From: Aliiglaciecola sp. LCG003
GTDB lineage: Bacteria; Pseudomonadota; Gammaproteobacteria; Enterobacterales; Alteromonadaceae
Length of the DNA: 64,000 nucleotides
Reading direction: 5' to 3'
Assembly: GCF_030316135.1 (NCBI RefSeq)
Contig: NZ_CP128185.1
Location: 1,984,001-2,048,000 of the forward strand
Numbering within the stretch: the stretch's first letter is position 1; each line of letters opens with the position of its first letter. A program made the position numbers and the translations under genes. The notes beneath the pieces were generated by a model, which was given only the letters and a program-made list of their open reading frames with translations, searched no databases and was not told the DNA's origin. Shown piece by piece: positions 55,938 to 59,262 of the stretch.

Positions 55938-56251
55938 GGAAGCTTCATTGATTGTTAAGCGCTGTGTTGGGGCTAAGGTAAGTCTACATGCCTGGCCATT
56001 TTTGACATTATAGCCCATCACCCATTGGCGCTCAGCTGTTATTTATATTTTGAATCAAAATTAATCTGACGTTGCCTTTTTTAGTCGGTTGAAAAAGAGG
56101 TGAGTTTTAAAATATGAGCTAAAATCTAAATTAGACAATCAATTAAAACCCACTCTGGTTATAGCTAAATTTATCTAGCTATTAAGCTGTTTCAGAAAAT
56201 ATTAAATTGAGGACCAATAAGTACAGGTCATTAGAAACAGGGGATAGTTCA
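55938..56251. other. Intergenic region before the DyP operon
   Basis: This 314-base AT-rich gap must hold the promoters for the DUF2986 gene and the DyP operon. Apart from the inverted repeat at 56161-56182 I see no well-formed element. Confidence 0.4.
56161..56182. promoter_or_regulatory. Inverted repeat upstream of the DyP operon
   Basis: ATAGCTA, an 8-base spacer and TAGCTAT form a perfect 7-bp inverted repeat, 70 bases before the first gene of the operon. It is a candidate operator for an unknown regulator. Confidence 0.35.
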
Positions 56252-56944
56252 ATGTCCAATATTGCCGGTAAATCCTACGCAATGAATGTGATTACGCCCA
56301 TCACCGGGTGGGTTTACTACTTAAATAGAATAAAATTTGCTGCGGTCCAATTTTCGGTGTCTAGAAAACTCGGTACAACAGGTTTTTGGGGAAACTTAGT
56401 ACCATTAAAATTAAGCAATTTGATATTTGAACGATTAAATGGATTGTTGACCTTATCACTCATCCATTATGCCCGCTGGGCTATTATTAAAGAATTCCCC
56501 CATTTAGATGAATCCCAACCAAAAGAACAGCTCAAATATCATTACATGCTGTTCTTTAGCAATTTCAATGGCAGTTGGAAGCAATATGTTGATTCATTCC
56601 ATATGGCTATCCCTAATGGCTTAGATTTGCTTTGGTATAAAAATGTTAAATATCCAAATTCGGTGCCGCTGCAGCCGTTTCACAATTATATTACCTATAA
56701 TCAAATTTGGACCAATCATTACTATAACGCCTACCCACTTGCCGCTTCTAACGATATCAAAGGAGCACAGGAGCTAACTGAAGAATTAAGCCATTTTATC
56801 AATGAAAGTGATCTAGACGCTAACCCTGAGCTATTTCAAACACGCTTTGAAAAACTGTTAGACAGCCAACAGCGAAACTTAGGCTTGATGTCTGCAACTC
56901 CAATAATAAGCTTATCCGCCAAAGCGGTAATGGACAGGGAGTAA
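56252..56944 (+). CDS. Unknown protein A of the DyP operon
   Basis: This 230-aa protein starts at the ATG at 56252, which has AGGGGA seven bases upstream; the frame opens 15 codons earlier without such a site. I do not recognise a named family. It shares with the next protein the segment LKxxYxxFxSNFxGxxxxY (residues 94-112 here), then Ala-Ile seven residues later and Phe-x2-Tyr-Ile 31 residues later, with identical spacing in both. A preceding HYARWAII (72-79) matches YLARVFLL in the partner. It is aromatic-rich, with no cysteine, signal peptide or clear membrane helix, so it is probably cytoplasmic. It lies six bases before protein B. Confidence 0.85.
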   Translation: MSNIAGKSYAMNVITPITGWVYYLNRIKFAAVQFSVSRKLGTTGFWGNLVPLKLSNLIFERLNGLLTLSLIHYARWAIIKEFPHLDESQPKEQLKYHYMLFFSNFNGSWKQYVDSFHMAIPNGLDLLWYKNVKYPNSVPLQPFHNYITYNQIWTNHYYNAYPLAASNDIKGAQELTEELSHFINESDLDANPELFQTRFEKLLDSQQRNLGLMSATPIISLSAKAVMDRE

Positions 56945-56950
56945 CCAGAC

Positions 56951-57640
56951 ATGGGAAATCGATTTGGCAATGCCTATGGTTTAACTGTGCTAATCCCAGT
57001 TAAACAAGGCACTGAGAATAATAGATCTTACGATAAGATCATCCGCGACCAATTACAAAAATGGCCTAAGCATGCAGACTCGCCCTTAGCTGCTGTACCA
57101 AATACCTATCTAGCCAGAGTGTTTTTATTGCAAGACGTGTTTTATCAAAGTGCTCCGGCCGTCGAAGAGCATTTAAAGAGTAAATATTTGGTTTTTACCA
57201 GTAATTTTTTTGGTGATCTGGATACTTATTTATATGGTATGTGGGAAGCCATTCATGAGGTTTTAACACCGTTTTTACGCCATTGCGTCGCCTTCGAAAA
57301 AGTAACTACTGCAGCAGGTTTTGTGAGCTATATAAAAAAATGCAAAATAAACAACAGTTTATTTTTCAATGGTGCTAACGATAAACCCCTCCCTGAACAA
57401 CTCAAAGCACTTTATGTAAAACAAGTCTTCATACATTTCGCTTATCTGTCGCAGCAATTTCGTTATCAAGGTGCTGTGGGCGCCGTGAATTTACAAAAGT
57501 CATTTAAAAATTTTGTAGCGTTAATTGATATAGAAAACTTGCAAGGTAAGAGCTGGCCTATCGCCGCAACTCAAGTTCCAGAATACATTGAAACCGATGT
57601 GGAAAATACCATCGTCAGCCACAAGGAGTTGCAGCAATGA
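56951..57640 (+). CDS. Unknown protein B of the DyP operon, paralogue of A
   Basis: This 229-aa protein has no recognised family. It carries the shared motif at residues 75-93 (LKSKYLVFTSNFFGDLDTY), with Ala-Ile at 100-101 and Phe-x2-Tyr-Ile at 124-128, so it is a divergent duplicate of protein A. It has two cysteines (about 112 and 131) that A lacks. GGAG lies ahead of the ATG, and the end overlaps the DyP peroxidase start by ATGA. Tight coupling suggests a heteromeric partner of the peroxidase. An alpha/beta ferredoxin-like fold is my guess from the strand pattern only. Confidence 0.85.
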   Translation: MGNRFGNAYGLTVLIPVKQGTENNRSYDKIIRDQLQKWPKHADSPLAAVPNTYLARVFLLQDVFYQSAPAVEEHLKSKYLVFTSNFFGDLDTYLYGMWEAIHEVLTPFLRHCVAFEKVTTAAGFVSYIKKCKINNSLFFNGANDKPLPEQLKALYVKQVFIHFAYLSQQFRYQGAVGAVNLQKSFKNFVALIDIENLQGKSWPIAATQVPEYIETDVENTIVSHKELQQ

Positions 57641-59262
57641 GCACTGATGAAGCCTTTTTGGATCTGCATGATATCCAAGGAAATATTGTATTTGGCTACG
57701 GCAGGTGGGGTTATCCTTTATCCCGCTATTTGTTTTTTAAAGTACATGATAAGCAGCAAGGTTTGAATTTTGTTGCTGCTCTTGTGCCGCTGATTACCAG
57801 CGCTGCACCACTAGATAAACAAAATAATGGCAACCAACCTGATGCAACAACCAACCTGGCATTTACCTATGCTGGCTTGCGGGAATTAGGTTTGCCTGAC
57901 GAATCCATGCGCAGCTTCCCTGAAGATTTCCGTATGGGAATGAAATCTCGTAAAGATATTTTAGGTGATGACGGCCCAAGCTCTCCCCCAAACTGGGATC
58001 CTATTTGGCATGACAATTACAGTGTTCATATGTTTTTAAGTATTAATGCCTCCTCTGAGCAAAACTTAATAAAACGCTATGATGCCATTTTAGACTTGTT
58101 GAAAGGTGCTGGAGAAGGAGTGGAGTTACTCAGTGGGCATAGCCGTGGCAAGGAAGATAATGACGCTAATTTTCAATCTGGCAACGCAATTATGCTAGAT
58201 GGGAAACCCACCGCAAATGAGCATTTTCATTATACGGATGGGATCAGCGATCCGGTTTTTAAGGGGCAGGGCAGGAATAAAATCGAAACAATCGGCGCAG
58301 GAAAACCAACCCGTGGCTCCGCTGCTACGGAAGATGGATGGGAACCATTGGAAACGGGCGAGTTCATCTTAGGTCATAAAGATGAAAGCGGCGAGTATCC
58401 AATTGCCCCTATCCCGCGACTTTTATCCTACAATGGCAGCTTTATGGTGTACCGGAAATTGCATCAAAACGTGGGAAAATTTAATGCTTATTTAGCACAG
58501 GCGAGCAAAGATTACGGTAAAGGTGACTTATCTGACGATCAAAGAAAAGAGACGATGAAGGCTAAGTTCGCGGGACGTTGGTCCAATGGCGCACCGCTGG
58601 CTACTTATCCAGATTATGCTTCAGCAATGAAATTTGGCCAGCAGTGGCAAGATTCAATTCATACTTTATTCTATGCTCAAAATGCCTCTGGTGAACAGAA
58701 AGCAAAGACACGAGCTACCTACGAAGATTTAAAAATCAAACGTCGTGGGTTTAATTACGACGGTGATATAAAAGGCGCTAGTTGCCCTTTGGGGGCGCAT
58801 ACTAGGCGTTTAAATCCACGAGGCTCGCTGGAATTTGACACCCCTGGTGCATTTGACACGCCCGGGGCTATGGTCAATCGCCGGCGCATACTGAGAAGGG
58901 GATTACCTTACGGCGATTCAACAGACCGAACTGACAATGATGGCGATCATGGCATTATTTTTATGGCGATTAACTGCAGTATCGAACGTCAATTCGAATT
59001 CATCCAACAACAATGGATAAACTACGGAAATGATTTTAAGTTGAGCAATGAAAAAGATGTTTTACAAGGTAACCACGAAATTGATCAAAAGGGTAATCCG
59101 AAGGGCCGCACGGTAATAAATGCCAATCCGGCACTAGGACAGCCAACTCACATGTGTTCAGCGATCCCTCGTTTTATAGAAACCCGAGGAGGGGACTATT
59201 TCTTTATCCCAAGTTTGACCGCTATTAGAATGATAGCCGAAGGAATTATTGACCCCACTTAA
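57637..59262 (+). CDS. DyP-type heme peroxidase
   Basis: This 541-aa heme peroxidase of the dye-decolourising superfamily is of the long class. Visible are the distal motif FHYTDGISDP with catalytic Asp201, the heme-ligand His388 in CPLGAHTRRLNPRG, and the distal Arg region PRFIETRGGDYFFIPSL (about 510-526). The first Gly of the usual GxxDG motif is His here. A tandem hexapeptide FDTPGA-FDTPGA (residues 400-411) sits between the heme-ligand segment and NRRRILRRGLPYG. There is no Tat or Sec signal, so the enzyme is cytoplasmic or compartment-loaded. It overlaps protein B by four bases. Confidence 0.93.
   Translation: MSTDEAFLDLHDIQGNIVFGYGRWGYPLSRYLFFKVHDKQQGLNFVAALVPLITSAAPLDKQNNGNQPDATTNLAFTYAGLRELGLPDESMRSFPEDFRMGMKSRKDILGDDGPSSPPNWDPIWHDNYSVHMFLSINASSEQNLIKRYDAILDLLKGAGEGVELLSGHSRGKEDNDANFQSGNAIMLDGKPTANEHFHYTDGISDPVFKGQGRNKIETIGAGKPTRGSAATEDGWEPLETGEFILGHKDESGEYPIAPIPRLLSYNGSFMVYRKLHQNVGKFNAYLAQASKDYGKGDLSDDQRKETMKAKFAGRWSNGAPLATYPDYASAMKFGQQWQDSIHTLFYAQNASGEQKAKTRATYEDLKIKRRGFNYDGDIKGASCPLGAHTRRLNPRGSLEFDTPGAFDTPGAMVNRRRILRRGLPYGDSTDRTDNDGDHGIIFMAINCSIERQFEFIQQQWINYGNDFKLSNEKDVLQGNHEIDQKGNPKGRTVINANPALGQPTHMCSAIPRFIETRGGDYFFIPSLTAIRMIAEGIIDPT

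What the first reader, a model, noticed from the sequence alone, without database searches (positions are those of the whole stretch)
56161..59262. Three-gene operon of two uncharacterised paralogous proteins coupled to a DyP peroxidase
Proteins A (230 aa) and B (229 aa) share an ungapped pattern over about 55 residues: LKxxYxxFxSNFxGxxxxY, Ala-Ile at +7 and Phe-x2-Tyr-Ile at +31 from the last Tyr. That makes them an ancient tandem duplication. Spacing is six bases between A and B and an ATGA overlap between B and the peroxidase, so the three are made together. None has an export signal. Known DyP systems pair with encapsulins (cargo) or EfeUO (iron uptake); none of those partners is here. The inference is a novel multi-subunit peroxidase or a peroxidase with two dedicated substrate or assembly partners.
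Basis: partly seen in the sequence, partly recalled or inferred. Interest (0 to 1): 0.78.

Follow-up and report, generated by a model that had tools for sequence, protein, structure and literature searches.

The report
DyP peroxidase with two obligate companion proteins
A heme peroxidase gene is preceded by two related genes of unknown function, and across at least five bacterial phyla this companion family is almost always found beside this branch of peroxidase, often with a second heme enzyme (a P450 or a catalase relative), which points to an undescribed multi-enzyme oxidation system that may act on fatty acids.

Summary
The three genes are real: A (56252-56944), B (56951-57640) and a DyP peroxidase (57637-59262), tightly coupled. 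A and B are true paralogues and match no Pfam or NCBIfam family. B is predicted with high confidence to have a dimeric alpha+beta-barrel fold; the model of A is inconclusive. A-B-DyP recurs in the same order in 75 of 75 relatives with enough DNA. In more distant relatives the same domain occurs singly, as AB-membrane helix-AB, or fused, beside or joined to a DyP in 34 of 35 loci. On the DyP tree these swap at least 10 times while the AB architecture stays fixed, so they look like functional alternatives. Patatin lipases, oleate hydratase and 3-hydroxyacyl-CoA dehydrogenase recur nearby. Best inference: a two-step lipid or fatty-acid peroxide pathway, analogous to dioxygenase-P450 and catalase-related oxylipin enzymes, with a DyP-AB complex as first enzyme. 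The substrate is not shown. The window's genome has no encapsulin, no P450 and no dedicated catalase-like partner.

The parts
56240..56244 (+). ribosome-binding-like GGGGA before A
   Evidence: read from sequence
56252..56944 (+). gene A, 230 aa companion (A-type AB domain), MSNIAGKSYAMNVITP...SLIHYARW...FFSNFNGSWKQY
   Evidence: conserved family A5, 64% mean column identity over 40 rows; no Pfam/NCBIfam match
56936..56941 (+). ribosome-binding-like AGGGAG before B, inside the end of A
   Evidence: read from sequence
56945..56950 (+). six-base spacer between A and B
56951..57640 (+). gene B, 229 aa companion (B-type AB domain)
   Evidence: family A4; AlphaFold2 pLDDT 89; residues 3-143 align to dimeric alpha+beta-barrel proteins, Z up to 7.7
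57623..57628 (+). AAGGAG ribosome-binding-like site for the DyP, inside B
   Evidence: read from sequence
57637..57640 (+). ATGA start/stop overlap, B to DyP
57637..59262 (+). DyP-type heme peroxidase, 541 aa; D201 in HYTDG, distal R273, proximal H388
   Evidence: residue conservation

Best explanation
A and B are companion subunits of a distinct clade of DyP peroxidases and probably form with it one cytoplasmic complex. SHOWN by sequence: A and B are paralogues; the family almost never occurs without a DyP; the DyP keeps its catalytic Asp, Arg and His; B is modelled as a dimeric alpha+beta barrel. INFERRED: A and B pair as a heterodimeric barrel that docks on the DyP and presents or channels a hydrophobic substrate. 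In most relatives a second heme enzyme, either a P450 that usually lacks the oxygen-activating acid or a catalase-superfamily protein, then works on the product; the two kinds are interchangeable. INFERRED with less certainty: the substrate is a fatty acid or other lipid, and the product passed on is a hydroperoxide or similar peroxide-level intermediate, so the system works like the dioxygenase-P450 and lipoxygenase/catalase-related oxylipin enzymes, with a DyP-AB complex in place of the dioxygenase. In the window's genome no dedicated second enzyme was found, so there the complex acts alone or with an unrecognised partner.
For: Order A-B-DyP on one strand in 75/75 loci with enough DNA. AB domain beside or fused to DyP in 34/35 distant loci and beside 18 of 21 DyPs found by DyP alone. 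Natural fusions P450-AB-TM-AB-DyP of about 1,400-1,630 aa, DyP-catalase-like (L155; L216) and DyP-P450 (L168). Partner label changes at least 10 times on the DyP tree while AB architecture needs only 6 changes, the minimum. P450 I-helix reads GxxPT, Pro replacing the acid, in 21 of 26 listed. The catalase-like profile's best solved matches are 3e4w and then coral allene oxide synthase 1u5u, ahead of true catalases. Lipid genes beside modules: patatin in the Vibrio P450-A-B-DyP operon, a homologous patatin beside the trans P450 in Undibacterium, and another in Sphingomonas; oleate hydratase, 3-hydroxyacyl-CoA dehydrogenase and thioesterase on plasmids, 3-hydroxyacyl-CoA dehydrogenase in Acinetobacter and Deinococcus. 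P450 and catalase-related heme enzymes as alternative second steps on fatty-acid hydroperoxides is established biology (PMC5617202, PMC13049297).
Against: No substrate, complex or activity is shown. The lipid genes are beside a minority of modules and mostly in the single-AB clade, not in the window's own clade. The window and its closest relatives have no P450 or catalase-like gene nearby; the genome has no P450 and its one strong catalase-like match is fused to a LodA-type oxidase. DyPs are not known to be dioxygenases. In many Betaproteobacteria the catalase-like gene is on the opposite strand, not in the same transcript. The structure of A is low-confidence.
Confidence: 0.5

Rival explanations
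1. Lipid-hydroperoxide or general peroxide defence: the DyP complex reduces organic peroxides, and the catalase-like protein or P450 is an auxiliary scavenger.
For: Catalase-like partner in 29 of 80 loci; KatG and Fur near the Granulicella module; GST downstream of P450 in 11 loci; a peroxiredoxin-like gene beside L026 (by eye).
Against: Does not explain why a P450 can replace the catalase-like protein, nor oleate hydratase and acyl-CoA genes; the catalase-like family is not matched by Pfam's catalase model in the two members tested, and its distal His is Asn in some members.
Confidence: 0.2
2. A peroxygenase-type system acting on another hydrophobic or aromatic substrate (secondary metabolite, terpenoid, lignin fragment), with A and B as substrate-binding subunits.
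For: DyPs classically oxidise aromatics; the fold matches of B include aromatic polyketide cyclases, 4-methylmuconolactone methylisomerase, EthD and ABM proteins; P450 without the acid fits peroxide shunt use.
Against: No aromatic or polyketide biosynthesis genes recur around the modules; lipid genes do.
Confidence: 0.18
3. A and B are heme-loading or assembly factors for the DyP; dimeric alpha+beta barrels include heme-handling proteins such as IsdG/IsdI.
For: IsdI with heme is among the structural matches of B; A-type and single AB domains keep an (I/L)H-x-x-R-(W/F) motif.
Against: The motif's His is Tyr in B. The companions persist as domains in giant P450-AB-TM-AB-DyP fusions and have membrane linkers, which fits a working subunit better than a loading factor. 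Z values are middling and show no function.
Confidence: 0.1
4. Chance neighbours or a decaying, mobile gene set without joint function.
For: Patchy in the genus: 2 of 9 genus genomes searched; different neighbours in related species.
Against: Conserved order across phyla, natural fusions, strongly conserved A.
Confidence: 0.02

Closest known systems
DyP-type (dye-decolorizing) peroxidases, larger forms such as fungal DyP (2d3q) and Dictyostelium DyPA
   Same: DyP_N and Dyp_perox_C domains, catalytic Asp, Arg, His
   Different: Obligate companion proteins; first Gly of GXXDG is His in the window's subclade (4 of 92; Dictyostelium DyPA has Asp there, PMC8230527 abstract)
Fungal DOX-CYP fusions (linoleate dioxygenase + P450)
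   Same: heme oxidase and self-sufficient-type P450 in one polypeptide or operon
   Different: first enzyme is a DyP with AB domains, not an animal-peroxidase/COX-type dioxygenase; substrate unknown
Coral cAOS-lipoxygenase and catalase-related hydroperoxide lyase
   Same: catalase-superfamily protein as fused or adjacent partner; profile match to 1u5u
   Different: no lipoxygenase; residue before the distal His is Ala or Gly, not the Thr of cAOS; some members lack the distal His
Dimeric alpha+beta-barrel proteins (ABM, EthD, DABB, LsrG/YgiN)
   Same: fold of B residues 3-143
   Different: no sequence match to any Pfam family; extra C-terminal helices
Encapsulin-cargo DyP and EfeUOB
   Same: DyP enzyme
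   Different: no encapsulin in the genome; no Tat-type signal, and TIGR01412 does not match the window DyP

Membership tests
DyP-type peroxidase superfamily | DyP domains above curated cut-offs | tested here: met
   PF21105 56.9 bits (cut-off 27.5), PF20628 24.6 bits (cut-off 20); TIGR01413 85.3 is below its 100.5 cut-off
DyP-type peroxidase superfamily | catalytic Asp, distal Arg, proximal His | tested here: met
   D201, R273, H388 in 92 of 92 aligned
DyP-type peroxidase superfamily | intact GXXDG motif | tested here: not met
   HYTDG in the window, GXXD in 88 of 92; the catalytic Asp is kept, so the superfamily assignment stands
DyP-type peroxidase superfamily | H2O2-dependent heme peroxidase activity | not testable with these tools
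   needs purified protein
Encapsulin-cargo DyP | encapsulin shell gene | tested here: not met
   PF04454 absent from the genome, positive in 3 control genomes
EfeUOB iron uptake | exported EfeB-type DyP | tested here: not met
   no Tat/export signal in N-terminus, no TIGR01412 match
Dimeric alpha+beta-barrel superfamily | ferredoxin-like fold of B | tested here: met
   pLDDT 89; top matches of residues 3-143 almost all of this fold, Z up to 7.7; Z is middling
Dimeric alpha+beta-barrel superfamily | ferredoxin-like fold of A | tested here: inconclusive
   pLDDT 67 and no clear match; homology to B supports it
Two-step oxylipin systems (dioxygenase + P450 or catalase-related) | lipoxygenase or COX-type dioxygenase as first enzyme | tested here: not met
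   first enzyme is a DyP; works-like claim only
Two-step oxylipin systems (dioxygenase + P450 or catalase-related) | P450 or catalase-related second enzyme | tested here: inconclusive
   met in 49 of 80 relatives and by fusion; not found for the window
Two-step oxylipin systems (dioxygenase + P450 or catalase-related) | fatty-acid substrate | not testable with these tools
   only gene-neighbour hints

The most novel reading that the evidence does not exclude
A new class of two-step lipid-oxidising system in which a DyP plus dimeric-barrel companion subunits replaces the lipoxygenase or cyclooxygenase-type dioxygenase, and hands a peroxide intermediate to an interchangeable P450 or catalase-related enzyme, in one case-set as a single P450-AB-TM-AB-DyP polypeptide.
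Probability: 0.4. Interest if true: 0.85.

Novelty: new variant of a known kind. Interest (0 to 1): 0.72.

Why it matters
DyP peroxidases have been known for decades without an agreed natural substrate for most of them. A clade that is tied to its own companion family, to lipid genes and to swappable second heme enzymes gives a concrete pathway hypothesis that can be tested. It also names an uncharacterised protein family absent from Pfam and NCBIfam, and explains giant proteins now annotated only as cytochrome P450.

Tried and rejected
Pfam, NCBIfam and solved-structure searches with A and B, alone and as families, gave only scattered chance matches. The idea that AB descends from the DyP's own N-terminal barrel got no support from profile comparison. 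Foldseek with the A model gave nothing usable, and the VIA second look matched only its C-terminal helices. I looked for an in-trans partner in the window's genome: no P450; a catalase-like domain only inside a LodA-type oxidase fusion, which I do not count as the partner. Literature searches for DyP with oxylipin, oleate hydratase, P450 fusion or gene neighbourhood gave no paper that describes this system; the library lacks most subscription journals. A and B as an encapsulin or EfeUO variant was rejected. Whole-genome laying into the Python box was not available.

Full report
OBSERVATION. The window holds A (230 aa, 56252-56944), B (229 aa, 56951-57640) and a 541-aa DyP (57637-59262) on the + strand, with a six-base gap and an ATGA overlap. 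A's start is 56252; 56161 is upstream sequence. The DyP has DyP_N and Dyp_perox_C domains and its closest solved relatives are large DyPs. It is the only match to this DyP in the 4.41-Mb genome. The closest relatives of A are in Paraglaciecola (90% and 85%). Within the genus the module is patchy, 2 of 9 genomes.

A AND B ARE PARALOGUES OF A NEW FAMILY. Neither matches Pfam or NCBIfam, alone or across family members beyond chance, nor a solved structure by sequence. Profile against profile they align over 176 columns at E 5e-13. A is unusually conserved, mean column identity 64% over 40 diverse rows, against 48% for B. The AlphaFold2 model of B has pLDDT 89. Foldseek finds only weak matches, and a VIA second look aligns residues 3-143 almost only to dimeric alpha+beta-barrel proteins, Z up to 7.7. 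Such Z values are middling, but the list is nearly uniform. The model of A is poor (pLDDT 67) and its fold is not independently established.

THE COMPANION FAMILY IS TIED TO DyP. A scan of 84,980 species genomes with the A alignment gave 216 relatives, of which 80 loci were kept, from Pseudomonadota, Acidobacteriota, a cyanobacterium (Pleurocapsa), Caldithrix and a planctomycete; these are record titles, and MAG assignments may err. In 75 loci with enough DNA the order A-B-DyP on one strand is invariant; the other five contigs end too early. A broader family profile found more distant members in Pseudomonadota (27 of 398 genomes sampled), Cyanobacteriota (3 of 194) and Planctomycetota (4 of 199), and the B profile did so in Acidobacteriota (6 of 247); centre genomes are counted. 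Of 35 such loci read at length, 34 hold the AB domain beside or fused to DyP; the exception, L167, is a weak 22-residue match. The reverse test started from DyP: 18 of 21 plasmid DyP loci checked carry an AB gene and the three without it are distant DyPs. Architectures are a single AB, A+B, AB-hydrophobic linker-AB, and P450-AB-TM-AB-DyP of about 1,400-1,630 aa. In the tandem forms the first half looks B-like and the second A-like, so A+B and the tandem proteins appear to be the same two-domain unit.

A SECOND HEME ENZYME. A P450 (20 loci) or a catalase-like protein (29 loci) lies within the fetched flanks of 49 of the 80 A+B loci. The catalase-like family's profile matches 3e4w (an uncharacterised protein), then coral allene oxide synthase 1u5u, then true catalases. 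It keeps the Arg before the distal His and the proximal R-x3-Y, but the distal His is Asn in some members and Pfam's catalase model does not match the two members scanned. The P450s keep the heme Cys motif in nearly all cases, but the acid of the I-helix acid-alcohol pair is Pro in 21 of 26 listed (12 of 15 in A8 and 9 of 11 others, counting PPQ forms); two Acidobacteriota P450s keep Asp. Fusions join these enzymes to the module directly: DyP-catalase-like (L155, L216), DyP-P450 (L168), P450-AB-TM-AB-DyP. On a 92-row DyP tree the A+B architecture is one clade (support 99), all architectures need six changes, the minimum, while P450 and catalase-like swap at least 10 times (quick tree, some long branches). 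Repeated swapping within a fixed architecture argues that both do the same job. Some modules without a neighbour have a close family member elsewhere in the genome (Undibacterium P450; Undibacterium jejuense catalase-like and Halomonas). In many Betaproteobacteria the catalase-like gene is adjacent but on the other strand.

LIPID CONTEXT. A patatin-like phospholipase follows P450-A-B-DyP in two Vibrio penaeicida genomes, and a homologous patatin (E 1.9e-179) follows the unlinked P450 of Undibacterium macrobrachii. Another patatin and a thioesterase follow the Sphingomonas AAP5 module. Oleate hydratase and 3-hydroxyacyl-CoA dehydrogenase, with thioesterase in three of four, flank modules in Novosphingobium, Roseomonas, Shinella and Agrobacterium; three of these are near-identical copies on mobile plasmids and should not count as independent. 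3-hydroxyacyl-CoA dehydrogenase also sits beside modules in Acinetobacter and Deinococcus.

MECHANISM. Shown: constant linkage, paralogy, conserved DyP catalytic residues, fusions, partner swapping. Inferred: A and B form a barrel heterodimer docked on the DyP, placing a hydrophobic substrate; the second heme enzyme uses the oxidised product without external electrons. The parallel with oxylipin pathways, where either a P450 or a catalase-related protein processes a fatty-acid hydroperoxide and is often fused to the enzyme that makes it, is documented (PMC5617202 and PMC13049297). The step from parallel to substrate is not shown. A defence role against lipid peroxides, or another hydrophobic substrate, remains open.

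THE WINDOW ITSELF. It holds no P450 or catalase-like gene; the genome has no P450 and no encapsulin. Its one strong catalase-like match is the N-terminal part of a 981-aa fusion with LodA-type oxidase domains. The GXXDG motif reads HYTDG, as in four of 92 rows. So the window carries a reduced form of a wider system.

NOVELTY. The parts belong to known superfamilies except AB; the combination was not found in the papers searched. I rate it a new variant of a known kind (DyP systems), with a substantial chance that it proves a new kind of system once its chemistry is known.

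Noticed in passing
L215:4255-7200 (window genome C1, about 544254-547199): 981-aa protein joining a catalase-like domain to LodA_N and LodA_C (CTQ-type amino-acid oxidase) domains, an apparent H2O2 maker with its own scavenger.
   Followed up: partly
L034:11139-12008, L038:8988-9821, L074:7083-7919: A 278-aa protein without a Pfam match sits on the same strand next to A-B-DyP in three loci that lack a nearby P450 or catalase-like gene; possibly a third kind of partner.
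   Followed up: partly
L142-L146, L166, L191, L196: Giant P450-AB-TM-AB-DyP proteins; the two with plasmid annotation (L191, L196) are named only cytochrome P450.
   Followed up: yes
L197:4597-5880 and L188:5285-8291: Two single-type AB genes beside one DyP, in Bradyrhizobium and Sinorhizobium; looks like a separate duplication, and L188 also has a NIPSNAP gene (another dimeric-barrel family) next to the DyP.
   Followed up: no
L148, L150, L155 catalase-like proteins: The residue aligned to the catalase distal His is Asn in these members, so they are unlikely to be ordinary catalases.
   Followed up: partly
L195:4865-12804: Mycetohabitans DyP without AB, in a cluster with a LodA/GoxA oxidase and a tryptophan 7-halogenase.
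   Followed up: no
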